Assembly (NCBI GenBank): GCA_030648295.1
Contig: JAUSID010000141.1
Coordinates: 1 to 64,000 of the forward strand
Length of the DNA stretch: 64,000 nucleotides
Reading direction: 5' to 3'
Origin: Opitutaceae bacterium
GTDB taxonomy: Bacteria > Verrucomicrobiota > Verrucomicrobiia > Opitutales > Opitutaceae
The notes below the pieces were generated by a model. It was not told the origin of the DNA, did not search any database, and saw nothing but the letters and a program-made list of their open reading frames with translations. The translations under genes and the position numbers were made by a program. This document shows, piece by piece, positions 878 through 57,450 of this stretch (position 1 is the stretch's first letter; each line of letters starts with the position of its first letter).

Positions 878-996
878 GTTCTGGGTTTTGGGTTCTGCGT
901 TCTGAGTTTCGAGTTTCGCGTTCTTGTCTGACCTCTGACCTCTGACATCTGACATCTGACATCTGACATCTGACATCTGACATCTGTCCTCTGGCT
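878..996. repeat. Degenerate heptanucleotide tandem array (17 units)
   Basis: From 878 to 996 the sequence can be cut into 17 consecutive 7-bp units without losing phase. The unit drifts from GTTCTGG/GTTTTGG through GTTTCGA to TCTGACC and then a run of six identical TCTGACA units (941-982), ending TCTGTCC, TCTGGCT. It fills the space between the convergent genes ending at 857 and 1011. The strict period with a changing unit resembles the cyanobacterial STRR heptamers. Confidence 0.9.
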
Positions 997-1010
997 TCAG
1001 CCCGCTGGCC

Positions 1011-1487
1011 TCAGGGTTCCGTTTCCGTCTCGGGTTTCAACGGTCCGTAATTGCCGCTCTCGGCGGCCTTCACGAATCCTTCGGTGACGCTCTTCAATTC
1101 CTCCCAGCGCCGGCGGATCGTCTTCGCCTCGTCCTTTGAAATCGCGTTGTCCGCCGAGGCTCGGGCGATCGTCGCGAGCATGTCGGCAAACTCCTGCACA
1201 ATGTCGTTGGTCACAGGGATCAGCGTGACCGTCGGCGGCAGGTTGTGCGGATTGCGGATATAAAATCCGTCCGCCTGTTCGCAGACCCACTGTGCGATTC
1301 GCACGTCATTCGTGATCCGGATCAGCTGTCCCACGCGGTCGAGCGGGCTGCTCGCGCCGCTGCCGCTGTCGTCCTCCGGGGGCTCCGCCCACTTGTAGAT
1401 CAGCGACAACGACAGGTTCATATCCGACGCGACTTGCTTCGCGCTCGTTTTCTTCAACACCTCTCTCATCACCTCGTGTGATTGCAT
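1011..1487 (-). CDS. Phage CII-like regulatory protein, 158 aa
   Basis: The N-terminal part contains a helix-turn-helix-like segment (SAKQVASDMNLSLSLIYKWAE, residues about 13-33) followed by a GSGASSPLDRVGQLIRITND stretch and a helical C-terminus (EFADMLATIARASADNAISKDEAKTIRRRWEELK). This layout matches the phage regulatory CII family known mostly from P2-like phages, here as an isolated chromosomal gene. The start at 1487 (MQSHEVMREVLKK) is chosen over two upstream in-frame ATGs because it begins the helical domain. It is transcribed away from sucC, so it could act on that promoter, but nothing in the sequence proves this. No other phage gene is nearby. Confidence 0.65.
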   Translation of the reverse strand: MQSHEVMREVLKKTSAKQVASDMNLSLSLIYKWAEPPEDDSGSGASSPLDRVGQLIRITNDVRIAQWVCEQADGFYIRNPHNLPPTVTLIPVTNDIVQEFADMLATIARASADNAISKDEAKTIRRRWEELKSVTEGFVKAAESGNYGPLKPETETEP

Positions 1488-1634
1488 GGGGTCGGAATCG
1501 TGCGTCTGCATTAGCGAAACGCAAACCCTCAACCTCAGGGGCTAACAAGGTCTTTTAGCGCCACCGCCGGGTCGTTTTTTGCGTGCCTCCCCCGCCCCGC
1601 GTCTGGCTTACTCGTCGCTCCTTTTCTTTCTCAA

Positions 1635-2819
1635 ATGAACATTCACGAGTATCAGGCCAAGGCTCTCTTCGAGAAATACGGCGTGCCGGTGCCGAAGGGC
1701 GCACCCGCCAAAACGCCGGAGGATTTCATCACCGCACTCGCCCAGCTGCCCGATGGCCCGACGATGGTGAAGTCGCAAATCCACGCCGGCGGCCGCGGCA
1801 AGGGTACCTTCACAAACGGATTCAAAGGCGGCGTGAAGTTCTGCAAGACCAAGCACGAGGCGCGCGAGTTCGCGGAGAAGATGCTCGGCAACACCCTCGT
1901 CACGCTCCAGACCGGCCCCGCCGGCCGGAAGGTCCAGACCGTCTACTTCACGGTCGCGAGCGAAATCAAAAAGGAATACTACCTCGCCATCCTGCTCGAT
2001 CGCACGACCTCGCGGCCGGTGATTGTCGCCTCGACGGAGGGCGGCGTCGAAATCGAGAAGGTCGCGCACGACACACCGGAAAAAATCCACAAGGTTTTCG
2101 TCGACCCGGCCGTTGGGCTCGCTGACTTCCAGGTGCGTGAGCTGATCTTCAAACTCGGCTTCACCGGCGCCGAGGCCAAGAACGCCGGCAAGCTCATCCG
2201 CAACTTGTACCAGTGCTACTGGGAAACCGACGCGGCGATGGTGGAGGTCAACCCGCTGATCACCACGCCGGCCGGCGAAGTCCTCGCGCTCGACGCCAAG
2301 GTGTCGTTCGACGACAATGCGCTTTTCCGCCACCCGGAAATCGTGTCGCTGCGCGACCTGAACGAGGAGGACCCGAAGGAAATCGAGGCCTCGAAGCACG
2401 CGCTTAACTACATCGCGCTCGACGGCAACATCGCGTGCCTCGTGAACGGCGCCGGGCTCGCCATGAGCACGATGGACATCATCAAGCATTTCGGCGGCAC
2501 CCCGGCAAACTTCCTCGATGTCGGCGGCGGCGCCTCCCGCGAACAGGTCGTCGCCGCGTTCAAGATCATCCTTGGCGACGCGAACGTGAAGGGGATCCTC
2601 GTGAACATCTTCGGTGGCATCATGGACTGCAACGTGATCGCCCAGGGAATCGTCGATGCGGTGAAGGAGGTCGGGCTGAAGCTGCCACTGGTCGTCCGAC
2701 TCGAGGGCAACAACGTCATCGCCGGCAAGGACACGCTCGCCAATTCCGGCCTGAAGCTCGTCTCCGGCGACTCGATGGCCGACGCCGCGCAAAAAATCGT
2801 GAAGCTCGTCGCCGCCTGA
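1635..2819 (+). CDS. sucC: Succinyl-CoA synthetase beta subunit (ADP-forming)
   Basis: Catalyses, with SucD, the reversible conversion of succinyl-CoA, ADP and phosphate to succinate, CoA and ATP in the citric acid cycle. The 394-residue length is close to the usual 385-400. The N-terminus MNIHEYQAKALFEKYGVPVP is typical, an ATP-grasp domain follows with the glycine-rich segment GGRGKG (about 54-59), then EVNPLITTPAGEVLALDAKV with the nucleotide and metal contacts near residue 203-222. The C-terminal CoA-ligase domain contains NGAGLAMSTMD and LVNIFGGIMDCNVIAQGIV. No clear Shine-Dalgarno sequence precedes the ATG. sucD follows after 121 bp on the same strand, so the two are very likely co-transcribed. 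Confidence 0.97.
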   Translation: MNIHEYQAKALFEKYGVPVPKGAPAKTPEDFITALAQLPDGPTMVKSQIHAGGRGKGTFTNGFKGGVKFCKTKHEAREFAEKMLGNTLVTLQTGPAGRKVQTVYFTVASEIKKEYYLAILLDRTTSRPVIVASTEGGVEIEKVAHDTPEKIHKVFVDPAVGLADFQVRELIFKLGFTGAEAKNAGKLIRNLYQCYWETDAAMVEVNPLITTPAGEVLALDAKVSFDDNALFRHPEIVSLRDLNEEDPKEIEASKHALNYIALDGNIACLVNGAGLAMSTMDIIKHFGGTPANFLDVGGGASREQVVAAFKIILGDANVKGILVNIFGGIMDCNVIAQGIVDAVKEVGLKLPLVVRLEGNNVIAGKDTLANSGLKLVSGDSMADAAQKIVKLVAA

Positions 2820-2846
2820 GCGGGCATTCCCTTCGCAACCTTGCGC

Positions 2847-2920
2847 CGCGAATCACGCCAACAAACGCGACTTCCCTACCAGCCGCCTGCCTGAATTCGC
2901 GCTGATTCGCGTGATTCGCG
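2847..2920. repeat. Inverted repeat in the sucC-sucD spacer
   Basis: CGCGAATCACGC (2847-2858) and its exact reverse complement GCGTGATTCGCG (2909-2920) flank about 50 bp, so the spacer can fold into a hairpin with a large loop. The arms resemble the ends of the dispersed repeat at 143-319. No T-run follows, so it is unlikely to be an intrinsic terminator; it could tune sucD expression or mRNA stability. Confidence 0.6.
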
Positions 2921-2940
2921 GGCCAAAACTCCTGATTCAA

Positions 2941-3864
2941 ATGTCAATTCTCGTTTCTCCCGACACCAAGATCCTCATCCAGGGCATCACCGGTGAATTC
3001 GGTGCCCGCCACACGAAACTGTCGCTCGACTACGGCACGAAAGTCGTCGCCGGGGTGACGCCCGGCAAGGGCGGCCAGTTCTTCGAGCACGGCAGCCACA
3101 AGGTCCCGATCTTCAATTCGGTTTCCGATGCCGCACGCGCCACCGGCGCGACCGTATCGGCGATCTTCGTCCCGCCGCCCTTCGCGGCGGACGCGATTCT
3201 CGAGTGCGTCGATGCCGATCTGAATCTCGCGGTGGCCATCACCGAGGGCATTCCGATCCGCGACATGGTGCGCGTGAAGCGCGCGATGACCGGCCGCCAG
3301 ACGCGGCTCGTGGGGCCGAACTGCCCCGGGATCGTGACGCCGGGCAAGGGCCCGCAGTCGAGCGGCGGCTGCCGGATCGGCATCGCGCCGGGATACATTC
3401 ACAAGTCCGGTCACGTGGGTGTCGTGTCGCGCTCCGGCACGCTGACCTACGAGGCAGTTTATCAGCTCACGGTCAAAAACATCGGCCAGACCACGTGTGT
3501 CGGGATTGGCGGCGACCCAGTCAACGGCACGTCTCACCTCGATGTGATCAAGATGTTCAACGACGATCCGGAGACCCATGGCATCATCATGATCGGCGAG
3601 ATCGGCGGCAACGCCGAGGTGGAGGCTGCCCGCTGGGTGAAGGCCAACTGCAAGAAACCGGTCGCGGGCTTCATCGCCGGCGCGACCGCCCCGGTCGGCC
3701 GGCGGATGGGCCACGCCGGCGCGATCGTCGGTGGCACCGAGGACACCGCTGCCGCGAAAATCGCGGTCTTCAAGGAGTGCGGTATCGAAGTGGCCGTTAC
3801 GCCGAGCGACATGGCCGACGCGCTGCTTCGCGCCGCCAAGGCCAGGAGCGTGACGCTCTCGTAG
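2941..3864 (+). CDS. sucD: Succinyl-CoA synthetase alpha subunit
   Basis: Partner of SucC; binds CoA and carries the phosphorylated histidine. The start at 2941 (MSILVSPDTKILIQGITG) matches the family N-terminus; an in-frame ATG at 2911 would add ten residues read from the spacer hairpin and is not used here. The 307 residues include the CoA-binding Rossmann domain (QGITGEFGARHTKLSLDYG), the segment LVGPNCPGIVTPGK, and the active-site histidine in MGHAGAIVGG (His258). The protein is slightly longer than the E. coli enzyme (289), mostly through an insertion around KGPQSSGGCRIG. It is the second gene of the sucCD unit. Confidence 0.97.
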   Translation: MSILVSPDTKILIQGITGEFGARHTKLSLDYGTKVVAGVTPGKGGQFFEHGSHKVPIFNSVSDAARATGATVSAIFVPPPFAADAILECVDADLNLAVAITEGIPIRDMVRVKRAMTGRQTRLVGPNCPGIVTPGKGPQSSGGCRIGIAPGYIHKSGHVGVVSRSGTLTYEAVYQLTVKNIGQTTCVGIGGDPVNGTSHLDVIKMFNDDPETHGIIMIGEIGGNAEVEAARWVKANCKKPVAGFIAGATAPVGRRMGHAGAIVGGTEDTAAAKIAVFKECGIEVAVTPSDMADALLRAAKARSVTLS

Positions 3865-3958
3865 TTGATCGACGTCCGCAGTCGACGGGCAAGCTCGCTG
3901 GAGTCGCAGCAGTCCCCGCCGCGGCTCTTGCATTTCCAGCGATCGTCCGTGTCCGTCC

Positions 3959-4043
3959 CGTTCTCTTTCTCTTAATCGTTCTCTTTCTCTCCTTTTCCTC
4001 CGGCCAATCCAGGAGAACGAGAAAGAATAAGAGAAAGAGAACG
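3959..4043. repeat. Long inverted repeat between convergent genes
   Basis: CGTTCTCTTTCTCTTA (3959-3974) is exactly complementary to TAAGAGAAAGAGAACG (4028-4043), with a second imperfect arm just inside. The hairpin lies between the end of sucD and the end of the convergent gene at 4102, a good place for a bidirectional transcription barrier, although there is no clean T-run. Related CGTTCTC-rich tracts occur at 8279-8313 and, again as an imperfect inverted repeat, at 39154-39202. Confidence 0.7.
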
Positions 4044-4101
4044 ATGACGGCTGCCGCCGGTAAATTGAACCGGACCGGGGCCCGCGCTCGAAGGCGCGCC
4101 G

Positions 4102-6402: not shown

Positions 6403-6779
6403 GAGGGGGCGTCGGACGCCGGGCGAAGGACAAAGCGGAAACCGTGACGCGAAGCCAGCCGCAACCGGAAACGACGGCGAGGTTTGAAGCGGCACGGGCA
6501 TCTTGCCCGTGATTAACGTTCTTGGCGGCGCGCGGCGCCGGCAACATGGGCGGGACGCCCATGCCACACCCAAGCCGGGATTCACTGCGGTCCCGAGTGC
6601 CACGCTCAAACCGGAATGCACGGCGGCAGCTCGAAGCGCCCCTCGGACCATGGCCGCGCCGCGCAACTCCGCGTTGATTGTCAAGATCGCTGCGGGTATT
6701 GCGCTCGCTGAAGGTGTTCCTTGCGACGCGCCGGAAGGCCCGCCACGCTGCGCGCCGACTTTCAACCCCGAAGGAAAAC
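6403..6779. other. Divergent spacer with hairpin repeats
   Basis: 377 bp between divergent genes. I see no gene in it. At 6491-6512 and 6548-6573 are two short hairpins of the type GGCACGGGCATCTTGCCCGTG and ATGGGCGGGACGCCCAT, the same family as three copies at 36206-36280. Promoters for both flanking genes must lie here, but I cannot pick convincing -35/-10 boxes by eye. Confidence 0.6.
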
Positions 6780-12014: not shown

Positions 12015-12034
12015 GCGGTTTCTACATCGGGCGG

Positions 12035-12287
12035 ATGGCGGAAAAATGACCCGCCACCGAAGCGCGATCAACGGGTCAGTTTCGGCAAACGCGAGGAGGC
12101 ACCATGGAATCTTTCGTCTCATCAGGGAATCAGCGCCGAACGGCTCGAGCAAATTCGCGCGCAGGTGACGGTGTCCGCGCCGGAGGTGGCTGCGGCCAAG
12201 GCGAAGACCGAAACTCCGGAGAGGAATAAAGAAGAGCGTCCGCTGGAGCCAACAGGACGACCGAGCACGACCGAGCGGAAACGTTAG
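12035..12287 (+). pseudogene. Frameshifted small gene, about 83 aa when repaired
   Basis: From 12015 to 12287 one frame stays open with protein-like composition but has no usable start until a GTG at 12168. In another frame an ATG at 12035 reads MAEK and then hits TGA (12047). Removing one base from the A5 run at 12042-12046 joins them into a single 83-residue protein: MAEK, then DPPPKRDQRVSFGKREEAPW, a helix-like SAERLEQIRAQVTVSAPEVA and a charged tail ending ERKR. I do not recognise the family. It may be a true frameshift, a homopolymer sequencing error, or slippage. A second start with a strong GAGGAGG site at 12103 opens only a 41-codon frame and is considered chance. Confidence 0.5.
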
Positions 12288-12293
12288 CGCGGA

Positions 12294-12419
12294 GGGTTCT
12301 GGGTTCTGGCTTCCGGGTTTCGCGTTCCGAGTTTCGGGTTTCGCATTTCGCGTTCCGAACTCTGACATCTGACATCTAACGTCTGGCTTCTGGCCTCTGG
12401 CTTCCGGCCTTTGGTTTCA
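12294..12419. repeat. Degenerate heptanucleotide tandem array (18 units)
   Basis: Exactly 126 bp that divide into 18 heptamers in one phase: GGGTTCT twice, GGCTTCC, GGGTTTC, GCGTTCC, GAGTTTC, GGGTTTC and so on, through GACATCT twice, to GGCTTCT, GGCCTCT, GGCTTCC. The units share families with the array at 878-996 (both contain GTTCTGG-type and GACATCT-type units). It fills the space between the broken gene and the sulfatase. Confidence 0.9.
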
Positions 12420-12468
12420 GCTTGGCGCTTGTCGTGCCCGCCGCCGCGGTCCAGATCGTGCTCTCTGC

Positions 12469-13962
12469 ATGAAACGACTGTTGCTGCCGCTCCTGTTCGC
12501 CGCCCTTACCTTTTCGACCGCGTCCGCCGCGACGAACCGCCCCAACTTCATCATCCTGATCTCCGATGACGTGAGCCACGACGATCTCGGTTGTTACGGC
12601 AGCCTCTCCGCGCGCACCCCGGCCATCGACAGCCTCGCCGCGTCAGGACTGCGATTCAACCAGGCCTACCTGCTCGCGAGCAGCTGCAGCCCGAGTCGCT
12701 CCAGCATCATTTCCGGAAGGTACCCGCACAATCTTGGCCAGGCGGCGGAATTGCACCGGCCCATCTCCGGGCACCTGCCGTCGATTGCGGGGCTGCTCCG
12801 CGATGCCGGCTATCACACTGCACTGGCCGGAAAGAACCACCTGTCGTGGACGCCCGTACCCGAGGGGACCACGAAGCCGACGCCCGCGTTCGTCAAAATA
12901 TATGACGCGAAGGTCGACGGGAATTCCGGCGGCCACGGAAATTGGATCAAGGCGCTCGAGGAGTGCCCGTCCGGCTCGCCGTTTTTTCTGTGGCTCGCGG
13001 CGCTTGACGCGCATCGATCATGGGATGGCGACGAAGAATGGGATGCCGCGCGCTTCGGCCCGAAACACGATCCCGCGACGGTAATCCTGCCGCCAGCGCT
13101 CGCCGACACTCCGGCCACGCGTGCGGACTTTGCTTCGTATTTAAACGAGATCACGCGCTTCGATCATTTCGTCGGCCGCGTCGTCGAGTGGCTGAAGCAA
13201 AAGGGGCAGTTCGAAAACACGTATGTTTTCGTGCTGGCGGACAACGGCCGTTCGTTTCCGCGCGCGAAGACGCGGCTTCACGACGATGGCATGAAGACGC
13301 ATCTCATCGTGAACGGGCCGGGAATGACGGCAAAAGGCCGTGCTTCGGATTCACTCGTGAGCGTGATCGACATCGCGCCCACCGTCGCCGAGTTCGCGGG
13401 CATCAAGAAGAGCGCGACGTTTCAGGGCCGCAGCCTGGCCGGCGTGTTGAAGGATCCCGCCGCCACGGTGCGACCCCTCGCGTTTTCAGAGCACAACTGG
13501 CACGATTACGAAGCGCATGGCCGCGCGGTGCGTGACGGGCGTTTTCTTTTCATCCGCAACTTCCGGCCGAAACTGGCGTGGCAGGGACCGGCGGACTCCG
13601 TCCGCTCGCCCTCGCACCAGGCGCTGCGGAAGGCGCGCGCCGAATCCCAAACCCTGCCGCCGATTCAGCAGGACGTGTTTCTCGCCCCGCGGCCGGAGGC
13701 TGAACTCTACGACACGCGTGCGGATCCGCATCAAATCAGCAACCTCGCCGGCAAACCCGAATTTGCCGCGATCGAAAAACGTCTTTCCGCCGCGCTCGAG
13801 CGGTGGATGGACCAGACCGGCGATTCCGTGCCGGATCAGATTTCACCGGACATGTTCAATCGCGAAACCGGCGCGCCGCTACCCGGCCGTCGAGCGGACA
13901 CCTACCTCGCGCCCGCGGGCGCGAGCCGCGGCGCCGATCGGATCAACGCGGACGGGTTATGA
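12469..13962 (+). CDS. Secreted sulfatase
   Basis: A 497-residue arylsulfatase-family enzyme that removes sulfate esters, probably from sulfated polysaccharide. It has a signal peptide (MKRLLLPLLFAALTFSTASA). The metal-binding aspartates are in LISDDVSHDDLGCYG (Asp33, Asp34). The active-site motif is CSPSR at 73-77, so Cys73 would need conversion to formylglycine by an anaerobic (anSME) or aerobic maturase, which is not in this window. The C-terminal part keeps LVSVIDIAPTVAEFAG and the typical RDGRFLFIRN strand. It is slightly longer than the core family through a basic tail. It appears to be a single gene, with the short ORF at 14012 convergent behind it. Confidence 0.93.
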   Translation: MKRLLLPLLFAALTFSTASAATNRPNFIILISDDVSHDDLGCYGSLSARTPAIDSLAASGLRFNQAYLLASSCSPSRSSIISGRYPHNLGQAAELHRPISGHLPSIAGLLRDAGYHTALAGKNHLSWTPVPEGTTKPTPAFVKIYDAKVDGNSGGHGNWIKALEECPSGSPFFLWLAALDAHRSWDGDEEWDAARFGPKHDPATVILPPALADTPATRADFASYLNEITRFDHFVGRVVEWLKQKGQFENTYVFVLADNGRSFPRAKTRLHDDGMKTHLIVNGPGMTAKGRASDSLVSVIDIAPTVAEFAGIKKSATFQGRSLAGVLKDPAATVRPLAFSEHNWHDYEAHGRAVRDGRFLFIRNFRPKLAWQGPADSVRSPSHQALRKARAESQTLPPIQQDVFLAPRPEAELYDTRADPHQISNLAGKPEFAAIEKRLSAALERWMDQTGDSVPDQISPDMFNRETGAPLPGRRADTYLAPAGASRGADRINADGL

Positions 13963-22878: not shown

Positions 22879-23049
22879 TGCCGTATCGATTCAGTGGGAA
22901 ACCGCGAATGAACGCGAATGGACGCAAATTCCAGAGGAAGAAGGAGAGGATTTGGAACCATGGTCACCTCTTGGTTGATCGTTTCCATGCTCCCCAAAGA
23001 CGTCCTCTCCATTCGCGTGAATTGGCGTCCATTCGCGGTTGAACTGAAT
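22879..23049. repeat. Dispersed ~175-bp repeat, copy 2
   Basis: Full-length homologue of the element at 143-319, with the same terminal inverted repeats (ACCGCGAATGAACGCGAATG and ATTCGCGTCC/ATTCGCGGTT types) and the same centre (CCATGGTCACC, GTTTCCATGCTCCCCAAAGA). The two differ by scattered substitutions and a few small indels. Both copies are followed or preceded by a TTAGCC/GGCTAA motif. The 424-bp stretch 22733-23156 holds this copy and no gene. Confidence 0.88.
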
Positions 23050-29903: not shown

Positions 29904-30043
29904 CTGTTGCTATGTTCGAACCCGGTGTGCAGCCGGGCCGAAAGTTGATGCCTGGATCTGGTATGCCTTGCTTTCGTTCGTACGCACCGGGCGGCGAACC
30001 GGCCGGTGCGTCCAACCCGCCGGCACCACGCTGGAGCGTGATG

Positions 30044-33000
30044 CTAGCGGGAAATTTTGCCGGTCTTGTCGTACGTCACGCGACCGTCGTAGGTGCTGAA
30101 GCACATCGCCTGCACCGTGACGCCCTCGAGCGCGACCGCGCTCGCGGGAACCTCGAGCCGCACCCACTTGGCCGGCCGCCGGCAGCGCGCCCGCGTAATA
30201 GCGCCCCGGCGTGCCGCGCGTGCCATAGTTGATCTTGTCGGCGCCCCAATAGGCGCGGTGCTCCCAGTTGCCGGCACCCCAGCTCAACATGATCGCCGTG
30301 GGCGGGTTCGCCGGATCAATGTAGACGTAAGCGTAGAGCCTGTCGCCCGTCGCCACCGTCATCGTCTCCGTGGCCCAGTTGAAATAATGTTCATGCAAAC
30401 CCGACGCGACGGTGGATTGGTGCGCGCGGCTGCCGGAGAACGGAGCCGGACTCGCGCTCGTCCAGTTCCAGCTGTCGCCGCCCGCCCCGCTGCCGCTCGC
30501 GCCGGCGGGAAGCGAATCGTCGAGCCACGCCCATTCCGTGCCCGTCGTCGTCGAAGGGGTTGAGGTCGTCGGTGACGTGGTGGTCGTCGAACTGCTCGAG
30601 GCGGCGGACTTGCCCGTCTTGTCGAACGTCACGCGTCCATCGACGGTGCTGAAGCACATGCCTTCGATCCGCGAGCCTTCGAGCGCGACCGCACTCGCCG
30701 GAACTTCGAGCCGGACCCACTGGCCGGCCGCTGGCAACGCACCCATGTTCACGCGACCCGGCGAGTTGTTGGTGCCGTAATCGATCTGGTTCGCACCCCA
30801 GTAGGCGCGGTGCTCCCAGTTCGACGACGCCCAGCTCAACATGATCGTCGTCGGCGTGTTCGCCGGGTCGAGGTATACATACGTGACGAGAATCTCGCCG
30901 GAATTGACCGTCATCGGCGCGGCCCAGTTGAAATAGTGTTCGTGCAAACCCGACCCGAGCGTCGACTGGTGAGCCTTGCCGCCAGAGAACGGCGCCGGAC
31001 TCGCGGAAACCCAATTCCAACCATCGCCACCGCCACCCGCGCCGCTCGCCCCGGTCGGCAGTGCGTCGTCGAACCAGAGGGAAATGCCACTCGTCGTGGT
31101 CGTCGTCGTGCCTGAGGTCGTCGTGCCACCCGAGGTCGTCGTGGTGCCCGACGTCGTCGTGCCACCCGACGTGGTCGTCCCACCGGAAGTTGTCGTGCCC
31201 GAAGTCGTCGTGTCGGTCGGGGTCGACGTGGTCGGGGATGTCGTGGCCGGCGGCGTGCTGCTGCTGCCCCCCATGGTGTAGAACACACCCTGGCTCGCGT
31301 TCAAGTAGCTGCCGCTCGCCGTGCTCTCGAGCTTGATCGCGCGGACCATGTAGGTGGAGCCGGAGGTCGCGCTGCTATCGGTGAAATTCAAAGCCGGGAT
31401 CGGCGAACTCGTCAGCCGCGTGAACGGGCCTGCGGCGGAAGACGCGCGGTAAACATGGTACCCGACCAGATTCGAATCCGACGAGGCTCCCCATGCCAGC
31501 GAAACGGAGAAGCCGCTCACAGTGCCGCCGAGGCTCGCGACGGGCGCGACCGGGTGCAGCCGCAGCGTCGGGTCACCCATGAGCGCGATGTGAATCCGAT
31601 TGGCCGAGCTGTTGATCTGCGTCTCGTAAAGTCCGTTGTTGTTCTGCGTGAGCCGCGCGGCGTAGCCGACAGTTTCACCGAGGCCCATCGGGTGCATGAA
31701 CCAGTGCGGCCGGCCGGACCAGACCGAGACGAGCCCGTTGGTGGTGGCGAGCGGCGCGCGCAGGATGCTGTCCTCGTGATCCCAATCGCCGAGCCAGGAG
31801 CCGAAGAGGAGGTTGAACACGCCGCGAACATTGCTGCTCACGAGCTCGGTCGTGGTACCGGTGTTGTAAATCCCGCTGTTGCCGATGCCGGCGATGCTCG
31901 AGTAGCTGCCGGCGCCGCAGGCGTAGGCGAGCAGGTAGTCGGTTGACGCGGCCTGCGGAATCCACACGCCGCGCTGGTCGTTGAACTCTGTATTAAGATT
32001 CCGGATGTTGTTCGCACCCACGAGTGGCGCGAAGCTGCGAAACCCGCTGGCCGCGAACGCCTCGCCGCCACGCGCGCCGAAGTAGTCGCCGAGGATCGCG
32101 CGCCGCGCCGGATTGAACGTACGGTGGCGGAAATTGTGATCGCGATTCAGATACGCGCGGAGCAGCTCCGTCTCGTTCGGAAACGTCGCCGGTCCGCCCC
32201 AAGTCAGGCGGCCGGGCAAGTTGGAAAGGTCGACGCGGCCCACCTCGAGCTCCACCGCGGAGGGAATCTGCGTCTGGTCGAACTTGCCGTCGCCGGGCCG
32301 GTTGGTGAGCCGCGCCGCATCCGCGGGATCGGTGTTCAGCGACTGGGTGACGTTCACCCAGCTGTCGGTCCAGCTGCCATCGATGTCGCCGTAATACACG
32401 TCGGCCGGCCAGGCGCCCTGGTGATCCGGATGACCGTCGGGATAAAGGTTGCCGGAGTACGGCACCGGCACGTGGCCGACGAGGAACACGGAGCGCACGT
32501 TCGCGGGATCCGCGTTGTAATCGGCGCCAATGAGATTCTTGACGTTCGCGGCCGAATCGCTGCGCGAGACGTCGTGGCGAATGACGGTCCAGCCGTCGCC
32601 CGCGAGGTCGCGTTGAAGCTGCGCGAGTTCGGCCGCGAGGCTCGAGGTGAACGTGTTGTCGACGATCAGGATGACCTTCCCGCGGTTATCGACGAGCGGC
32701 GCACTCACGCCGGCCTGCACGTAGCCGTAGCCCATGTAGCCGCCGGCGGATTTGGCCACGCGGTACTCATGCGCCGTGCCGGCGCTGACGCTGGTGTCGG
32801 TGTAGGACGTGGTGGAACCGGGGAGCGTCGTGAGCGTAGCCCACGAGCCGGAGTTCGGAGCTTTGCGGGAAATGGTGTAGCTGGCGGGAACGCCATTCGT
32901 GTCCTGCGGCCAGGCCAGGGTGATCGTGGCCGGCGAGGTCTGAATGGTGGCGCTGACCCGGACGGAGTAATCCCACGTATTTTCGACGGCGTAGGTTGCC

Positions 33001-33059
33001 CCGGTGAAGATGAGGATGATTCCAAGCAGCAGAATCGCTGCGGCACTTTTGACCTTCAT
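30044..33059 (-). pseudogene. Secreted C25-like peptidase with duplicated C-terminal domain (one frameshift)
   Basis: About 1000 residues if the frame is restored. It starts at 33059 with a signal peptide (MKVKSAAAILLLGIILIFTG). Domain order: a fibronectin-III-like domain (about 30-115); a gingipain/C25-like region (about 120-470) with KVILIVDNTFTSSLAAELAQ, VRSVFLVGHVPVPYSGNLYP, WPADVYYGDIDGSW and LLAYACGAGSYSS; a second FnIII-like domain (about 475-590); a Thr/Ser/Gly linker (about 596-660); then two copies of a roughly 155-residue domain (WFDDALPTGAS..., HEHYFNW..., WEHRAYWGA..., WVRLEVPASAV). In copy 2 an extra base at 30168/30169 (CCCACTTGG instead of CCCACTGG) shifts the frame after ALPAAGQ; the correct continuation is in the next frame to the stop at 30044. 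Confidence 0.75.
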
Positions 33060-33520
33060 AGCGCCGCCAGCATGAAGGAAGCGCCGGGTTCCCATTATCC
33101 GCACTGGTCTGATAAACCTGTCAGTGTGCCGGACGGCGACGTGTCCGTGTTTGTCTGACAAAATCAGGGTGTGCAGCAGCTGGGCGCCACGGGCACCGTC
33201 GTCACTGCGCAACTCCGCTGGAAACAACGAGCTGCCGTTTGAAGCTGAGACCTGAGTGGCCGAACACCGGTGCGGGATGGAAGCCCGCGCCGGTCGAGGG
33301 CAGGACGAGTGACGGGGCGAACCGCCGCGGGCGAGCGAATTGCAGCGGGCGGATCGCGACCTCGCGGCACGCAATCATTTACTCCAAAAAAAACGCGGTG
33401 TGTATTCGGATTCCGGCGACTCGAAGTGGCTGCGAGATCCCGTTCGGCTTTCCGAACCAATCCATGCGGGCGGGACGCCCGCGCTCCCAGGCGACCGAGC
33501 CGCCCTGCCGCTCCACCGGC

Positions 33521-33615
33521 ACCGTCTCACCGTTTCACCGACCACCGCCTCACCGCCTCACCGCCTCACCGCTTCACCGCCTCACCGCCTCACCGCTTCA
33601 CCGCCCCACCGTTTC
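33521..33615. repeat. 8-bp tandem array (about 12 units)
   Basis: Units of ACCGCCTC with variants ACCGCTTC, ACCGTTTC, ACCGCCCC, in phase apart from one 7-bp unit at 33537-33543. It ends four bases before the stop of the DUF1080 gene on the minus strand. The 559-bp stretch 33060-33618 also contains a REP-like hairpin (33466-33491) and no gene. Confidence 0.87.
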
Positions 33616-33618: not shown

Positions 33619-34278
33619 TTACGGCAGAACCCGGACCTTGATGTTCTTGTACATCACCTTGCTCTCGGGGTCGTGGCCTTGGATCGCAAGAGTGCCGTGC
33701 GAAATCAGCCGGCCCTTCATGTTGGGCGGCCGCTCCGCGTTCGGCTCTTCCGTGTAGTCGACGATTTTCCTGCCGTTCACGAACGTCTGGACGTGCTTTC
33801 CCTCGACCTTGATTCGCATCGTGTACCATTCGCCGTCCTTGGCCGGAGCTTCGAAATTATCCTGGATCGAGTAGAGCCCGGCGCCTTTTTTCTTGTCCGA
33901 GTGCGTGTTGTTCACCTGGACCTCGTAGCCCTTTTCCGGCCAGCCGGTCTCCTGATATTGAGTGTGAAAATAGACCCCGCCGTTCGCTTTGGGGAAGGTC
34001 TTGATGTCGAGCTGGAGTTCGAAGTTCTTGAAGTCGTGGTTCGCCACCGGTCCTTCGTAGAACAGGTGCGAGCGCTTGCCGAAAGCGACGAGGAGGCCGT
34101 CCTGGACGGTGAACGTGCCCTTGTTCTCGCTCGGCTTCCAGCCATCGAGTGACTTGCCGTCGAAGAGCAGTTTCCAGCCGGCGGATTTCTCCGCGGCGGT
34201 GAGCGTGTTCGCCTCCGCCGCGAATGTGCGGCTGAGTGCGAAGGCGGACAGGATAAGTATGGAAAGAATGCGTTTCAT
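33619..34278 (-). CDS. Secreted DUF1080 protein (3-keto-disaccharide hydrolase family)
   Basis: A 219-residue exported protein (signal MKRILSILILSAFALSRTFA). The mature part is one concanavalin-like DUF1080 domain: GWKLLFDGKSLDGWKPSENK, FKNFELQLDIKTFPKANGGV, YEVQVNNT, and LAIQGHDPESKVMYKNIKVR. Members of this family hydrolyse 3-keto-glycosides after oxidation by Gfo/Idh/MocA dehydrogenases, or bind glycans. The start at 34278 begins the signal peptide. It is divergent from the second DUF1080 gene at 34795, with repeat DNA between. Confidence 0.9.
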   Translation of the reverse strand: MKRILSILILSAFALSRTFAAEANTLTAAEKSAGWKLLFDGKSLDGWKPSENKGTFTVQDGLLVAFGKRSHLFYEGPVANHDFKNFELQLDIKTFPKANGGVYFHTQYQETGWPEKGYEVQVNNTHSDKKKGAGLYSIQDNFEAPAKDGEWYTMRIKVEGKHVQTFVNGRKIVDYTEEPNAERPPNMKGRLISHGTLAIQGHDPESKVMYKNIKVRVLP

Positions 34279-34365: not shown

Positions 34366-34640
34366 TAACCGCGAATGAACGCGAATGCAGAAGCCATACA
34401 GAATCCGCCTTCCCTGGGAGCGCGGGCAGCCTGCCCGCCGAAGCCTCTGGCGAAGGAGGGTCTCGCCCGAATGGTTTACCGCGAACGAATGCAGTTAGGA
34501 ATCGCTGCAATCGCCCAACCAAGGCAGGACAACCGCGAATGGACGCGAATCAACGCGAATTCGGAGGGACCATGCTCTTAAGAGGGGGAAAGCACCGCTA
34601 CGCCTTGCCTCTGAATTCGCGTTCATTCGCGGTTAACCAG
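34366..34640. repeat. Half copies of the dispersed ~175-bp repeat plus REP hairpin
   Basis: Contains TTAACCGCGAATGAACGCGA at 34366, AACCGCGAATGGACGCGAAT at 34534 and the inverted TTCGCGTTCATTCGCGGTTA at 34616, so these are ends of the element seen complete at 143-319 and 22879-23049. A REP-like unit (GGGAGCGCGGGC...GCCCGCC) is inserted at 34414-34439. I see no gene in 34279-34794. Confidence 0.75.
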
Positions 34641-38842: not shown

Positions 38843-38868
38843 GGTTCGGCCGAAACGTTTTCACCAAA

Positions 38869-38898
38869 GGCGCGGCCAGTGTGGCCGCGTCTTTTTTT
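38869..38898 (+). terminator. Strong intrinsic terminator
   Basis: Perfect 8-bp stem CGCGGCCA / TGGCCGCG with a GTG loop (38869-38887), followed by TC and a run of nine T. It ends the transcript of the isomerase and oxidoreductase. Confidence 0.92.
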
Positions 38899-38976
38899 TT
38901 GCATGCGGTGCGTCCCTGGGAGCGCGGGCGTCTCGCCCGCAGTGGTCGAGAGGCTGCGGTCGCCGACCGATGCTCG

Positions 38977-39071
38977 GATGATCAGATGATCAGATGGTCG
39001 GATGGTCAGTGGTCAGTGGTCAGTGGTCAGTGGTCAGTGGTCAGTGGTCAGTGGTCGGTGGTCGGTGGTCG
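38977..39071. repeat. 8-bp then 7-bp tandem array
   Basis: Four 8-bp units (GATGATCA twice, GATGGTCG, GATGGTCA; 38977-39008) pass directly into nine 7-bp units: GTGGTCA six times, then GTGGTCG three times (39009-39071). The change of period by loss of one base inside the same motif is visible. REP-like units flank it at 38914-38939 and 39097-39121. Confidence 0.92.
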
Positions 39072-39124
39072 GTAAAGCGGTAGGAGGCTCGCTCGCCTGG
39101 GAGCGCGGGCGTCTCGCCCGCAAC

Positions 39125-39417
39125 GTGGCTGCGGCTTCCAGCCGCAGATGATTAGGAAAAAGAGAACGAAGTACCTTCCCCGACTCGTTCTCTTTTCCTC
39201 TTTCTCTTTCTCGTTCTGTTCCCCTTCGTTCGAAGCGGCAGACGGATGCCGAATGAGTTCACGACCCCTCTGCGGCTGGAAGCCGCAGCCACTTCAGAGC
39301 ACCTAGGTTCGACCCAAGAAATCGGCTGCGCAATCGTCCGCCGTGGCTGCGGCATCCTGCCGCAGTGACTTTCGAACGAAACTTTCGATCCCCTCTGCGG
39401 CTGGACGCCGCAGCCAC
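39125..39417. repeat. Four alternating GTGGCTGCGGC hairpins
   Basis: Four copies of one hairpin in alternating orientation: GTGGCTGCGGCTTCCAGCCG (39125), its reverse-complement type CTGCGGCTGGAAGCCGCAGC (39270), GTGGCTGCGGCATCCTGCCG (39343) and CTGCGGCTGGACGCCGCAGC (39395). An imperfect inverted repeat of AGGAAAA(A)GAGAACGA type lies between the first two (39154-39202). With the tandem array and REP units before them, these fill 38899-39503; I see no gene there. Confidence 0.85.
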
Positions 39418-39503
39418 TTTGCCGGAAAACCGATCCCTTCGCTGTCTCGTCAACCGGCCCCGTTTCAATCCGGCCATGCGTCGGCACGCCCGCGCTCCCG
39501 GGC

Positions 39504-50121: not shown

Positions 50122-50145
50122 TGCGCGACTCTCATTCTCCCCATA

Positions 50146-51096: not shown

Positions 51097-51257
51097 CGCT
51101 TCGCGTCCGGATTCCGTTCGCGGCGCCAGCGGCGGCTCGGAACCGGGGCCGGATTCCAAGCCGCCGGCACCGCGGCACGGCTCATCGGAGCCGGACTCGT
51201 ATTCGCCGCCCCACCCTTTCCCCCCTCTGCCCCGCTTCGCTCCGGTTTCCAAATTCC

Positions 51258-52388: not shown

Positions 52389-52536
52389 CCGACGGGTCGG
52401 CGAAGCCGCAGGGCAATCGCGAATCGCCCCGAACACGCGCTGATTTCTAAGCGGACTAAACAAAACCGAAGCGCGCTGCCGCTCCGCCCCAGCCGGAACG
52501 ATGCAGTCGGAGTGCTGTTTCGGTCCGAAATCGAAT

Positions 52537-52695
52537 CCACTGAAAGGTGGAGCGGTCTGCTGGCCAGCACTCTGCTGTCCAGCAGAGCCAACGCGCATGA
52601 ATCGTTCACTCGAAAAAAGCGGCTTGAGGAGTCCCTCGACAGGCTCGGGACCCTGAGCCCGTCGAACGGGCAAGCCGCTCCACCTCGACTGCATG
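52537..52695. repeat. Dispersed repeat (CTGAAAGGTGGAGCGG family), copy B
   Basis: Second copy of the element at 29538-29710, including CCACTGAAAGGTGGAGCGGT, CTGCTGGCCAGCA, GTTCACTCGAAAAAAGCGGC, CTCGACAGGCTCGGGACCCT and GGCAAGCCGCTCCACCTCGA. It also carries CTGCTGTCCAGCAG, an extra hairpin not in copy A. At 52747-52782 a half copy of the 175-bp repeat follows. The 494 bp between 52389 and 52882 hold these repeats and no gene. Confidence 0.85.
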
Positions 52696-52882
52696 ACTAC
52701 GGCTCAGCTGGTTTATCCGAAACTTCCCCTCCCGGATTGGTTTTCATTCGCGTCCATTCGCGTTCATTCGCGGTTAAACCGAATTGGCCGGGCTACGCCC
52801 GTTTCAAGGTCATGACATCACAATTTCTCCACCGGTTTTTTTGGCGTTTGGAATTTCGCGATTTGTGATTTCGCATCCTGCT

Positions 52883-54399
<1,517 letters not shown>

Positions 54400-54403
<4 letters not shown>

Positions 54404-55419
54404 ACCCCGCCGAGTCATCCCGTCCCCGGCGTCCGCTCTCGCCGCTCGTCTGGCTCTGCCTTGGCCTGACCGCGCTCGTGCTGTGGAACGTGGTCAGCAA
54501 TCCCGCGTTTCTCGCCGTGACGTTGCGCGACGGCCATGTGTACGGCGTTCCGATCGACATCTTCACCCAGGCGTCACGCACGATGCTCGTGGCCCTCGGC
54601 ATGACGCTCGTGATCGCGACCGGCGGCGTCGATCTTTCGGTCGGCTCAGTCGTCGCGATCGCCGGCGCCGTGTGTGCGTTGACTCTCGGTCACGGGGCCG
54701 GGCTGCCGCTGACAATCGCGGCGGCGATCGCCGTCGGGGCGGCCGCCGGCGCGGTCAATGGGCTGCTCGTGGCGCGCCTCGCGATCCAGCCCATCGTGGC
54801 GACACTCATCCTGATGGTCGCAGGCCGCGGCATCGCCCAGCTTCTATCCGGCGGCCAGGTGCTGATCATCGCGGACAAGAGCTTCGAGTTTCTCGCCAAC
54901 GGGTTCGTGCTCGGCCTGCCGTTCGCGCCGCTGCTCGTCGCGGCGCTGTTCCTGGCCGCGCACCTGGCGCTGCGCCGTTCCGCCCTGGGACTCTTCATCG
55001 AAGCCGCCGGCGACAACGAAACCGCCAGTCGTTTCGCCGGTCTCGCCGCGGCGCGAATCAAGTGGCTCGTCTACGTGTTCAGCGGCGCGTGTGCCGGCCT
55101 CGCCGGTGTGCTGACCGCGTCCAACATTCGCGCGGCCGACGCCAACCGCGCCGGTGAAAACGCCGAACTGGACGCGATCTTCGCCGTCGTCGTCGGCGGC
55201 ACGGCTCTGACGGGCGGCCGGTTTTCCATCCTCGGCACGTTTCTCGGCGCGCTCCTGATCCAGACTCTCGCGACCACGATGTACTATCGTGGCGTCCCGC
55301 CGGCGGTCGCGCCGGTGCCGAAGGCGCTGCTCATCGTCGCCGTGTCGCTGCTCCAGTCGGAGAAACTGCGCAACCGCATCTCGGCGCTCTGGCGCAAACC
55401 GCGAAAGGTGGCCGCATGA
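54400..55419 (+). CDS. ytfT: Galactofuranose-type ABC transporter permease
   Basis: 339 aa, about ten membrane helices. GMTLVIATGGVDLSVGSVVA, NGLLVARLAIQPIVATLILM, VAGRGIAQLLSGGQV and RGADANNAG-like IRAADANRAGENAELDAIFA match E. coli YtfT closely. It pairs with the second permease to form the channel. Overlaps the ATPase gene by four bases and the next permease by four bases. Confidence 0.95.
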
Positions 55420-56390
55420 TTGCCCGCTCGCTCTCCACCCGCTACCTGCCGCTGATTGCGACCAGCGGGATTTTCCTCGTGCTGTTCATCACCGCCTCGG
55501 TGTTGAATGAGGGATTCTTCTCCGGCCGCGTGATCGTGAATCTGCTCTCCGACAATGCGTTTCTCGGCATTGCCGCGGTGGGCATGACGCTCGTGATCTT
55601 TTCCGGAGGCATCGATCTGTCCGTCGGCTCGGTCATCGGGTTCACCTCGATTTTCAGCGCGACGATAATCGCGGGCCACGGCGTGCACCCGGCCATCGCC
55701 TGGATCGCGGCCGTGATTCTCGGCGCGCTGCTCGGCGCGGCGATGGGCACGCTCATTCACGTTTTCGAGCTGCCTCCATTCCTGGTCACGCTCGCCGGTA
55801 TGTTCCTCGCGCGCGGTTCCGCGTTCTGGCTCAACACCGAGTCAGTCGGAATCTCGCATCCGTGGTACGATGGTCTTTCGAACTTCGCGCTGTCGCTGGG
55901 CCCAATCCAGGTTTCCGCCGCCGCGCTGTTGCTGCTCGCGACCGCGCTCGCCGGCTACGTGGTGGCGCACCACACGCGTTTCGGCCGCAACCTGCTCGCG
56001 ATCGGTGGCAGCGAACAATCGGCGCTGCTGATGGGACTGCCTGTCGGCGCGGCGAAGATCGCGGTCTACACTGTCAACAGCGCCTGCGCCGCTTTCGCCG
56101 GATTGGTGGCGACGCTCTACACGGGCTCGGGCAATCCGAGCATGGGCATCGGACTGGAACTCGATGCGATCGCCGTCGTGGTAATCGGTGGCACGTTGCT
56201 CACCGGCGGCCGCGGACATCTTTTTGGCACGGTGCTCGGGCTGCTGATTTTCGGAACGATCCAGGCCGCGATTCTGTTCGACGGCCGGCTGAGCTCGTGG
56301 TGGATGCGGATCGTGGTGGGCGCGCTGCTCCTCGTGTTCATCCTGCTCCAGCGGCTGTTGGTCCGCGGTGAAACTCGCGCGGGGCATTGA
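55416..56390 (+). CDS. yjfF: Galactofuranose-type ABC transporter second permease
   Basis: 324 aa membrane protein. NLLSDNAFLGIAAVGMTLVI, FSGGIDLSVGSVIGFTSIFS, HPWYDGLSNFALSLGPIQVS, VELDAIA-like GLELDAIAVVVIGGTLLTGG and FDGRLSSWWMRIVVGALLLV match YjfF. Two different permeases plus one ATPase and one binding protein reproduce the E. coli ytfQRT-yjfF set, with only the glycosidase inserted. It ends the locus; no regulator of the set is adjacent. Confidence 0.95.
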   Translation: MIARSLSTRYLPLIATSGIFLVLFITASVLNEGFFSGRVIVNLLSDNAFLGIAAVGMTLVIFSGGIDLSVGSVIGFTSIFSATIIAGHGVHPAIAWIAAVILGALLGAAMGTLIHVFELPPFLVTLAGMFLARGSAFWLNTESVGISHPWYDGLSNFALSLGPIQVSAAALLLLATALAGYVVAHHTRFGRNLLAIGGSEQSALLMGLPVGAAKIAVYTVNSACAAFAGLVATLYTGSGNPSMGIGLELDAIAVVVIGGTLLTGGRGHLFGTVLGLLIFGTIQAAILFDGRLSSWWMRIVVGALLLVFILLQRLLVRGETRAGH

Positions 56391-56458
56391 CGCGCCCGCG
56401 GCGGTGGGAGCACGGCGAAGCGAAATCTCCCCGCGGCGGTGTCGGCTCGACAAAACGG

Positions 56459-57061
56459 CTACGGCGTCGCCGGCTCGGTGCACGCGACCGATACGACCGC
56501 CGGCGGCGTGCCATTTCGCAGCACCAACGGGATTCGCACGTCGCGATAACCTTTGCGCTGCCCGACGATTTCATAGTCACCCGGCAGTATCTTCACCTTC
56601 GTTTCCGTGAAGGTGCGCAACGGCTTGAAATTGCTGATCGTGACAAAGGTCGCGCCGTCGGACTTGAACGTCACTTCGAGCGGCTCGTTCTGCGCCTGCA
56701 ATGTCGCCTGAAGTTGTTTCACGTCCGGCGTAACCGGCAGATCCGCGGGCTTCAGCTGCATCGCTTCGTTGTAGCGGCGAACCGCCCATTGGAATTCAGC
56801 CCGCGCCAGATACTGCCGGGCCTGCTCAAGCAACGCGTGGTACTGCCGCTCGGCCGGCCAGGTTGAGCGCTCCTGATCGAACCTCGCGCGCGCCTTCGCC
56901 TCCTCCGCGCGCCGCCGCGCCAAATCCTGCTGGTAGGCGCGCTCGTAGTTGAGCTGCTCGTCATTCGCCGGGGGCGATGCCGGCTGCGCCGACAGCAGCG
57001 CGACAAAAACAAGGATGAGGGCGGTCCCAATCGTGAGTCTGGCGTAGCGCAGCGTTTTCAT
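56459..57061 (-). CDS. Membrane-anchored protein with PEGA-like C-terminus
   Basis: 200 aa. An N-terminal hydrophobic segment (ARLTIGTALILVFVALLSAQ) is a signal peptide or anchor. Residues about 45-110 are charged helices (DLARRRAEEAKARARFDQER), possibly coiled coil, including a TPR-like AEFQWAVRRYNEAMQLKP. The last 60 residues, TKVKILPGDYEIVGQRKGYR and VRIPLVLRNGTPPAVVSVAC, look like a PEGA domain, a surface-layer or envelope module. The start at 57061 begins the hydrophobic segment. Confidence 0.78.
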   Translation of the reverse strand: MKTLRYARLTIGTALILVFVALLSAQPASPPANDEQLNYERAYQQDLARRRAEEAKARARFDQERSTWPAERQYHALLEQARQYLARAEFQWAVRRYNEAMQLKPADLPVTPDVKQLQATLQAQNEPLEVTFKSDGATFVTISNFKPLRTFTETKVKILPGDYEIVGQRKGYRDVRIPLVLRNGTPPAVVSVACTEPATP

Positions 57062-57187
57062 GGGGTGAGCGAGCCAACGCACCGGGGTTCAATCACTGAT
57101 CGCTCGATTCGGCACGGACAAACCGCAGCGGAGTGCAAGGGAAAGTGAGAGTCAGGGTGAGAGCGTGTCGGTCGAGTGTAGCGCGGA

Positions 57188-57317
57188 TGTAGGAGCCTGC
57201 TTGCAGGCGATTGGTTTGGTTCGGTGGGAGCGCGACCGCCCCCGGTCGAAACGATCAAAAGCGACCGAGGGCGGTCGCGCTCCCAACCGATCATCGCCTG
57301 CAAGCAGACTCCTACAA
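57188..57317. repeat. REP-like long imperfect palindrome, copy B
   Basis: From TGTAGGAGCCTGCTTGCAGG (57188) to CCTGCAAGCAGACTCCTACA (57298-57317), with inner arms TGGGAGCGCGACCGCC and GGCGGTCGCGCTCCC around a loop containing AAACGATCAAAA. Its layout equals copy A at 20719-20836. It is followed directly by the heptamer array at 57325-57450. No gene lies in 57062-57446. Confidence 0.88.
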
Positions 57318-57324
57318 AACCGCC

Positions 57325-57450
57325 GTCATTGGTCATTGGTCATTGATCATTGGTCATTGGCCATTGCCCATTCGTCTCCGGTGCCCTGGTCCCGAATCTC
57401 CAGTTTCCAGTTTCCGGTCTCCGGTCTCCGGTTTCCGGTCTCCCGTCTAC
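57325..57450. repeat. Degenerate heptanucleotide tandem array (18 units)
   Basis: 126 bp in one phase: GTCATTG three times, ATCATTG, GTCATTG, GCCATTG, CCCATTC, then GTCTCCG, GTGCCCT, GGTCCCG, AATCTCC, AGTTTCC twice, GGTCTCC twice, GGTTTCC, GGTCTCC, CGTCTAC. Two different unit families meet without a break in phase. The same total length (126 bp, 18 units) occurs in the array at 12294-12419. Its last bases overlap the stop of the sialidase-like gene. Confidence 0.88.

What the first reader, a model, noticed from the sequence alone, without database searches (positions are those of the whole stretch)
878..57450. Strict-phase degenerate heptanucleotide arrays like cyanobacterial STRRs
At 878-996 (17 units), 12294-12419 (18), 57325-57450 (18), 39009-39071 (9) and 60603-60637 (5) the spacer DNA can be cut into 7-bp units with no phase loss, although the unit changes along the array (GTTCTGG, then TCTGACA; GTCATTG, then GGTCTCC). 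Two arrays share unit types, and two have the same length, 126 bp. Random drift of a simple repeat would not keep phase over such divergent units, so replication slippage, a bound protein reading a 7-bp frame, or recombination between arrays may be at work. Heptamer STRRs are known from filamentous cyanobacteria; I do not know of them in Verrucomicrobiota.
Basis: partly seen in the sequence, partly recalled or inferred. Interest (0 to 1): 0.75.

Follow-up and report, generated by a model that had tools for sequence, protein, structure and literature searches.

The report
Oriented seven-base repeats between genes
The window holds real arrays of seven-base repeats between its genes, a kind of simple repeat already known from many bacteria, and what stands out is that after the ends of genes they mostly point the same way.

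Summary
The arrays are real. In 38 spacers of the window six 7-bp-periodic stretches (482 bp) stand against none in 100 dinucleotide shuffles. Genome-wide, (TCTGACA)3 with up to 2 mismatches has 104 overlapping places, its reversed control none. Seven is the commonest period, but 6-, 8- and 9-bp arrays also exceed chance. Phase is kept mostly within a unit family, not at joins between families, so "no phase loss although the unit changes" holds only in part. These are heptanucleotide simple sequence repeats, a known class; a weak excess in Verrucomicrobia is already in print (PMC4060949), and TCTGACN arrays occur in at least ten phyla by record title. What remains open: within 50 bp of stop codons the G-rich strand is the coding strand in 49 of 58 lag-7 arrays here and 25 of 27 in a second species (array-free windows 154 of 302). 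A like rule is published for quadruplex-forming heptamers of Xanthomonas and Nostoc (PMC4692102); here it also holds for arrays without any GGG (20 of 25; 18 of 20), so three-tier quadruplexes are not the general reason. Best reading: slippage-grown repeats filtered by orientation at gene ends. Function was not shown.

The parts
878..922 (+). G-rich heptamer block GTTCTGG then GTTTCGN, 20 bp after the stop codon of the + gene ending at 857 (convergent spacer 858-1010)
   Evidence: GC skew +0.36
927..1015 (+). C-rich heptamer block TCTGACC/TCTGACA then TCTGGCT; antisense to, and reaching, the 3' end of the - gene 1011-1532 (weak PF06892 match)
   Evidence: GC skew -0.29
12294..12434 (+). composite array, blocks GTTCTGG, GTTTCGN, TCTGACA, TCTGGCY with one stray TCTGGC-type unit among the first two, about 35 bp before the + sulfatase gene 12469-13962
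   Evidence: GC skew +0.16 for 12294-12358 (against the orientation rule) and -0.10 for 12359-12434
38969..39007 (+). 8-bp array GATGATCA that passes directly into the 7-bp array
39003..39073 (+). heptamer array TGGTCAG, nearly perfect, convergent spacer 38843-39503, G-rich strand = coding strand of the upstream gene
   Evidence: GC skew +0.53
57325..57448 (+). heptamer array GTCATTG then GGTCTCC, antisense to the BNR_2 gene 57447-58604(-) and reaching its stop codon
   Evidence: GC skew 0.00 for 57325-57373 and -0.23 for 57374-57448
60598..60628 (+). short heptamer array ATTTCGG/ATTGCGG in convergent spacer 60560-60712, with inward-facing REP-like palindromes on both sides
   Evidence: GC skew +0.47

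Best explanation
These are dispersed heptanucleotide simple sequence repeats of the STRR/LSSR class. Inferred: units multiply by polymerase slippage in non-coding DNA; the vocabulary of units differs between species and spreads to new spacers by an unknown copying route. Shown: within a family the 7-bp frame is mostly kept while units diverge; arrays are scarce between divergent genes and enriched between convergent ones; close downstream of stop codons the G-rich strand is mostly the coding strand. Inferred: that orientation is imposed by selection or by transcription-linked expansion at gene 3' ends (untranslated RNA leaving the gene is G-rich; RNA entering the gene antisense is C-rich), so most arrays are tolerated spacer filler whose wrong orientations were lost, not dedicated parts of one machine.
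For: Excess over shuffles. Unit identity decays with distance within arrays of 63 bp or more: 0.80 to 0.53 over 8 units in G000 (57 arrays), 0.75 to 0.64 in G022 (28 arrays); off-phase 0.24 and 0.23. Species-patchy vocabulary in the genus: TCTGACA in 2 of 25 genomes, GTTCTGG in 7 of 27, GGATTGC in 13 of 27. G000 lag-7 arrays: of 150, 25 lie in called genes and 3 at edges; of the other 122, 36 lie in convergent spacers, which hold 15% of intergenic bases, and 9 in divergent ones, which hold 28%. Orientation within 50 bp of a stop: 49 of 58 in G000, 25 of 27 in G022, 38 of 56 in 80 named loci; array-free windows of G000 and G022 154 of 302. Convergent lag-7 arrays of G000 obey in 35 of 36. The rule does not depend on GGG tracts.
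Against: Slippage alone does not explain why the same units sit at so many places, why G022 identity levels off near 0.63, nor the block order. Near start codons the orientation is largely background (array-free windows 399 of 506; arrays 21 of 23 in G000, 5 of 5 in G022). For 8- and 9-bp arrays of G000 it is weaker near stops (16 of 23 within 50 bp; 21 of 33 at all distances), and lag-7 arrays 51-150 bp from a stop obey in 9 of 13 (G000) and 1 of 3 (G022). Lag-6 arrays do not show it. In the window itself 12294-12358 goes against it. TCTGACN arrays lean against the local contig skew (21 same, 35 opposite), so a replication effect is not fully excluded. No strain-level comparison was possible. 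Genes were called by my own codon-model script.
Confidence: 0.6

Rival explanations
1. Gene-boundary elements: the C-rich strand points into the gene at its 3' end, so that antisense or read-through RNA entering the gene carries a C-rich repeat, with a pyrimidine-C pair in most unit types (by reading, not counted), which could load Rho and stop that transcript.
For: Orientation at stops; enrichment in convergent spacers; rho family matched in 27 of 27 genomes of the genus, over the curated cut-off in 16; many arrays are long enough for a rut site (recalled).
Against: The lean is also present in cyanobacterial loci (TCTGAC 12 of 16; any 7-bp array 35 of 51) and published for Nostoc (PMC4692102), and cyanobacteria are held to lack Rho (recalled, not settled here: the family also rings in Synechococcus elongatus and in two archaea among the controls, score not shown). 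No transcript data.
Confidence: 0.17
2. Hairpin or terminator elements: inverted pairs of arrays (GGATTGC..GCAATCC, GTTCTGG..CCAGAAC, GRCCAGA..TCTGGCY) fold into long stems at the 3' ends of convergent genes.
For: Multi-array spacers run G-rich then C-rich 27 times against 1 reversed in G000 and 12 against 1 in G022; some spacers such as L095:3662-3829 fold almost entirely into one stem; arm matching in G000 is slightly above permutation (P = 0.04, 32 spacers).
Against: In G022 arms of one locus match no better than arms of different loci (P = 0.38, 14 spacers); many G..C pairs are of unlike units that cannot pair, the window's 878-1015 among them; spacers with a single array (periods 6-9) obey the rule as well (71 of 93; 23 of 26).
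Confidence: 0.12
3. A composite mobile element (blocks in fixed order) that copies itself into spacers.
For: Block order GTTCTGG/GTTTCG before TCTGAC/TCTGGC in 16 of 18 spacer strands of G000, mixed in 2, reversed in 0; same units at many places.
Against: With arrays masked, spacers with 7-bp arrays share sequence with other spacers about as often as spacers without (47 of 90 against 282 of 581); no terminal motif seen; block order may just follow from G-rich-left, C-rich-right.
Confidence: 0.06
4. A protein reads the DNA in 7-bp steps and selection keeps the frame.
For: In-phase gaps 21 of 29 and 27 of 34; in G022 TCNGNCN units vary at positions 3, 5, 7 (the pattern that collected the units fixed the other positions).
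Against: Phase is not fixed between unit families (10 joins) and 6-, 8- and 9-bp arrays coexist; substitutions outnumbering indels plus whole-unit slippage keep phase without a protein.
Confidence: 0.05

Closest known systems
Cyanobacterial STRRs (short tandemly repeated repetitive heptanucleotides)
   Same: degenerate 7-bp tandem arrays, intergenic, many copies; the unit at 57325 is a rotation of TTGGTCA (STRR unit recalled)
   Different: other host; other main units (TCTGACN, GTTCTGG, GGATTGC); several unit families joined in one array
Long simple sequence repeats of prokaryotes (Mrazek 2007 as described in PMC4679880; Mrazek and Huang 2014, PMC4060949)
   Same: heptanucleotide arrays in excess, patchy among relatives; Verrucomicrobia already score above zero for 7-bp repeats
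   Different: the 2014 pattern counts units repeated in a row (7n3); these arrays are degenerate and were read for orientation
GGGNATC / GGGGA(C/T)T heptamers of Xanthomonas and Nostoc (PMC4692102)
   Same: same placing: G-rich strand on the coding strand just after stops, on the non-coding strand just before starts; under-represented between divergent genes
   Different: discussed there as G-quadruplex formers; here the rule also holds for arrays with no GGG
TAACTGA direct repeats of Beggiatoaceae (PMC4679880)
   Same: 7-bp intergenic direct repeats, patchy across distant phyla
   Different: one unit, 2-6 copies per set in the Orange Guaymas genome, mostly just before start codons; suggested there as translational sites

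Membership tests
Heptanucleotide simple sequence repeats (LSSR class) | tandem 7-bp units longer or more frequent than chance | tested here: met
Heptanucleotide simple sequence repeats (LSSR class) | intergenic preference and patchy presence among relatives | tested here: met
Heptanucleotide simple sequence repeats (LSSR class) | copy number changes between strains by slippage | not testable with these tools
   one genome per species held; only the indirect sign
Cyanobacterial STRR | degenerate heptanucleotide tandem arrays dispersed in spacers | tested here: met
Cyanobacterial STRR | one of the classical units (CCCCAGT, TTGGTCA, CAACAGT; recalled) | tested here: inconclusive
   among the window arrays only 57325 carries a rotation of TTGGTCA
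Quadruplex-forming heptamers (Xanthomonas, Nostoc) | a tract of three or more G per unit, four units in a row | tested here: not met
   not met for the class as a whole: of 58 lag-7 arrays near stops in G000 16 have four or more GGG tracts, 17 have one to three, 25 have none; of 27 in G022 none has four. GTTCTGG arrays do meet it
Quadruplex-forming heptamers (Xanthomonas, Nostoc) | G-rich strand coding-side after stops, under-represented between divergent genes | tested here: met
   published rule read
CRISPR | repeats separated by unique spacers | tested here: not met
   head-to-tail units without spacers
REP / BIME | palindromic units | tested here: not met
   the heptamers are direct repeats; REP-like palindromes lie beside two window arrays but are not clearly associated (8 of 90 spacers with 7-bp arrays against 36 of 581 others)

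The most novel reading that the evidence does not exclude
Bacterial heptamer arrays of quite different sequence and phylum obey one handedness at gene ends (G-rich strand leaving the gene, C-rich strand entering it) because they act as, or grow by, a general transcription-boundary process that needs no quadruplex and no hairpin. They would be a common, overlooked class of polar gene-boundary DNA.
Probability: 0.2. Interest if true: 0.7.

Novelty: new member of a known kind. Interest (0 to 1): 0.36.

Why it matters
Heptamer repeats are spread over many phyla; the papers read here give no settled account of their unit length, dispersal or function. The placing rule found here is shared with quadruplex heptamers but holds in arrays without GGG and in spacers without a partner arm. 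That weakens two standing explanations and makes the question testable with strand-specific RNA data in a culturable carrier.

Tried and rejected
Hairpin pairing as the general cause: not supported, since arms within a locus match little (G000, P = 0.04) or no (G022, P = 0.38) better than arms between loci. Replication-strand bias: orientation against local contig GC skew is near even for most unit types, TCTGACN leaning 21 same to 35 opposite, TGGTCAG 0 to 4. Flanking mobile element: masked spacers with arrays share sequence about as often as those without. Ortholog comparison: the gene 1011-1532 has a match in 24 other genomes of the genus; none carries a 7-bp array downstream at the working threshold (one weak 7-bp stretch of 23 bp in L144, one weak 6-bp stretch in L158; two loci end within 420 bp), but the neighbour gene differs in G000, so no clean empty site was obtained. 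Ortholog loci for the sulfatase gene were fetched but not analysed. Vocabulary against phylogeny: on one short, weakly resolved gene tree, GGATTGC-rich genomes need 5 changes against 5.5 in shuffles, so no clustering is shown. Cross-phylum test of orientation: the first, crude ORF version gave 28 of 43 (P = 0.07); the codon-model version gave 38 of 46 (P = 9e-6). Both are reported; the second was a repeat with better gene calls. By side the second splits into 25 of 32 near a stop and 13 of 14 near a start (my reading of the table). Of its 86 TCTGAC clusters, 25 fell in called genes, 14 at edges and 1 in a spacer over the 1500-bp limit; these were dropped.

Known biases: 31 of the G000 stretches and all 19 G022 stretches were chosen because they hold TCTGACA hits, and the contigs of the first 864 kb because they hold at least one. 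TCTGAC contains TGA, so a called start tends to fall just after a sense array (this favours the rule near starts) and a called stop just before one (this works against the rule near stops). GTTCTGG and GGATTGC units hold no stop codon on either strand (by reading). Blocks and arrays of one spacer are not independent, so P values are optimistic.

Full report
WHAT IS THERE. The window (G000:C267:1-64000; genome 9.12 Mb in 294 contigs; G+C 64% in the 864 kb read) carries 7-bp arrays at all five places named. They lie in spacers. By my gene calls those at 878, 39003 and 60598 lie between convergent genes, 12294 before a sulfatase gene, and 57325 against the stop of a BNR-domain gene (gene families). 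The window's spacers give 6 lag-7 stretches against none in 100 shuffles. In 864 kb of the genome, 40 lag-7 arrays stand against 0 in one shuffle, and (TCTGACA)3 with up to 2 mismatches has 104 overlapping places genome-wide, with 0 for the reversed control. Periods 6, 8 and 9 are also in excess, with unit families of their own (examples): 6, CTCTTT; 8, AAGGGACC or TCCCTCAC; 9, GTCTTCCGC.

PHASE. Within arrays of 63 bp or more, unit identity falls from 0.80 to 0.53 over eight units in G000 (57 arrays) and from 0.75 to 0.64 in G022 (28 arrays; level from the fifth unit on), against 0.24 and 0.23 off phase. Where diverged units interrupt a family, the spacing is still a multiple of 7 in 21 of 29 and 27 of 34 cases. 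At joins between the GTTCTGG/GTTTCG and TCTGAC families it is not fixed (10 joins). Substitutions outnumbering frame-breaking indels, plus whole-unit slippage, can account for this. A frame-reading protein is not required.

BLOCK ORDER. Of 18 spacer strands of G000 that hold both GTTCTGG/GTTTCG-type and TCTGAC/TCTGGC-type tokens, the first type lies wholly 5' of the second in 16, the two are mixed in 2 (C23:63789-63985 and the window's 12015-12468) and the order is reversed in none; with clusters of two or more tokens it is 16 of 17, the exception being in L078, where the left gene lies outside the stretch read (sequences). The order agrees with the orientation rule below, since the first type is G-rich and the second C-rich, so it need not mean a common ancestor element.

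ORIENTATION RULE. Left of the spacer's middle arrays tend to be G-rich, right of it C-rich: G000 lag 7, 46 of 52 and 53 of 68 (Fisher P = 1e-13), convergent spacers 35 of 36; lag 8, 16 of 20 and 19 of 26; lag 9, 7 of 8 and 8 of 11; G022 lag 7, 18 of 20 and 20 of 23; lag-6 arrays do not show it (G000 3 of 6 and 9 of 10; G022 10 of 15 and 0 of 3). Spacers with one array (periods 6-9) obey in 71 of 93 (G000) and 23 of 26 (G022). Among spacers with more, G000 has GC 27, CG 1, GG 7, CC 6 and seven longer strings, of which five begin with G and end with C; G022 has GC 12, CG 1, GG 3, CC 2 and two longer ones. Split by gene end: within 50 bp of a stop, lag-7 arrays obey in 49 of 58 (G000) and 25 of 27 (G022), with 154 of 302 for skewed array-free windows; at 51-150 bp 9 of 13 and 1 of 3; 8- and 9-bp arrays of G000 16 of 23 within 50 bp. 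Within 50 bp of a start, 21 of 23 and 5 of 5, but background is already 399 of 506. The rule is therefore a property of the arrays close to 3' ends and largely background at 5' ends. By unit type in convergent spacers of G000 (blocks of one spacer are counted apart): GTTCTGG sense to the nearer gene in 10 of 10, GTTTCGN 13 of 14, GGATTGC 10 of 10, GTGACGA 3 of 3; TCTGACN antisense in 10 of 10, TCTGGCY 5 of 5; G022 TCTGACN antisense 13 of 15, TCTGGCY 11 of 13. By G tracts within 50 bp of stops: arrays with four or more GGG 13 of 16, with one to three 16 of 17 (G000) and 7 of 7 (G022), with no GGG 20 of 25 (G000; two of these have no GG at all, both obey) and 18 of 20 (G022). Three-tier quadruplexes are thus not needed; two-tier ones are not excluded. 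In the window itself six of the seven skewed pieces measured agree with the rule, 12294-12358 does not, and 57325-57373 has no skew.

RELATIVES. In the genus, TCTGACA arrays occur in 2 of 25 genomes, GTTCTGG in 7 of 27 and GGATTGC in 13 of 27 (several with one or two places only). About 150 kb from three other members holds no lag-7 array, apart from a run of N. Over the phylum, TCTGACN x3 occurs in 35 of 288 genomes, and the window's genome has the most places (139). By record title these cover at least ten phyla, among them Verrucomicrobia, Cyanobacteria, Acidobacteria, Bacteroidota, Chloroflexi, Nitrospirae, Planctomycetota and Proteobacteria. In these the TCTGAC strand points at the nearer gene in 38 of 46 spacers with codon-model gene calls and in 28 of 43 with crude ORFs. 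Cyanobacterial loci (21 by title) 12 of 16, others 26 of 30; any 7-bp array 35 of 51 and 42 of 62.

LITERATURE. PMC4692102 (abstract and the introduction, intergenic-repeat and discussion sections read) reports the same placing for quadruplex heptamers. PMC4060949 (passages read) gives 7-bp repeats a positive phylum score in Verrucomicrobia (0.50), Planctomycetes (2.00), Chloroflexi (1.00), Deferribacteres (1.00) and Bacteroidetes (0.75). PMC4679880 (abstract, introduction and one closing section read) describes TAACTGA repeats and cites the 2007 survey in which heptanucleotides were the most abundant class in most genomes. PMC12699852 (passages read) holds no word beginning with 'hepta'. In the listings (titles and starts of abstracts; most lists were capped) I saw no other paper that states the orientation rule; subscription journals are largely not held.

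MECHANISM. Shown: excess, phase within families, species-patchy vocabulary, convergent enrichment, orientation after stops. Inferred: slippage as the growth process, an unknown dispersal route, and orientation set by selection or by transcription at gene ends. Hairpin pairing, flanking mobile DNA and replication direction were tested and do not carry the rule, with the reservations given under tried and rejected. A Rho-site reading fits this genus, which has rho, but fits cyanobacteria badly if, as recalled, they lack it.

VERDICT. The class is known, also in Verrucomicrobia. What is worth keeping is the orientation rule freed from GGG quadruplexes.

Noticed in passing
window 38915-38940, 39096-39121, 60566-60591, 60685-60712: REP-like palindrome CCTGGGAGCGCGGGCGTCTCGCCCGC and close variants, shared with dozens of spacers of the sample read, in direct or facing pairs around two of the arrays.
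   Followed up: partly
window 22903-22929, 34534-34560, 52745-52772: A 10-bp repeat family (CGCGAATGAA, variants and complement) of which longer forms recur in many spacers of the genome.
   Followed up: no
window 33520-33611: 8-bp array CACCGCCT, 11.6 copies, in the spacer between the - gene calls 29910-33059 and 33619-34278.
   Followed up: no
L095:3662-3829, L096:4174-4426, L097:8630-8796 (second species, G022): Convergent spacers of about 170-250 bp that fold for the most part into one hairpin with heptamer-repeat stems; L095 also has a nested GATAACTCGCC..GGCGAGTTATC palindrome.
   Followed up: partly
window 1011-1532: Gene with a weak Phage_CP76 match, one match each in 25 of 27 genomes of the genus; in many relatives the spacer behind it leads to what looks like an rph-type gene (recognised by eye, not searched), in this genome to another gene, so the array at 878 may lie at a break of gene order.
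   Followed up: partly
G017 and G006 (listing): GGATTGC arrays in inverted pairs tens to hundreds of bases apart, G-rich arm first in the pairs that I noted in the capped listing.
   Followed up: no
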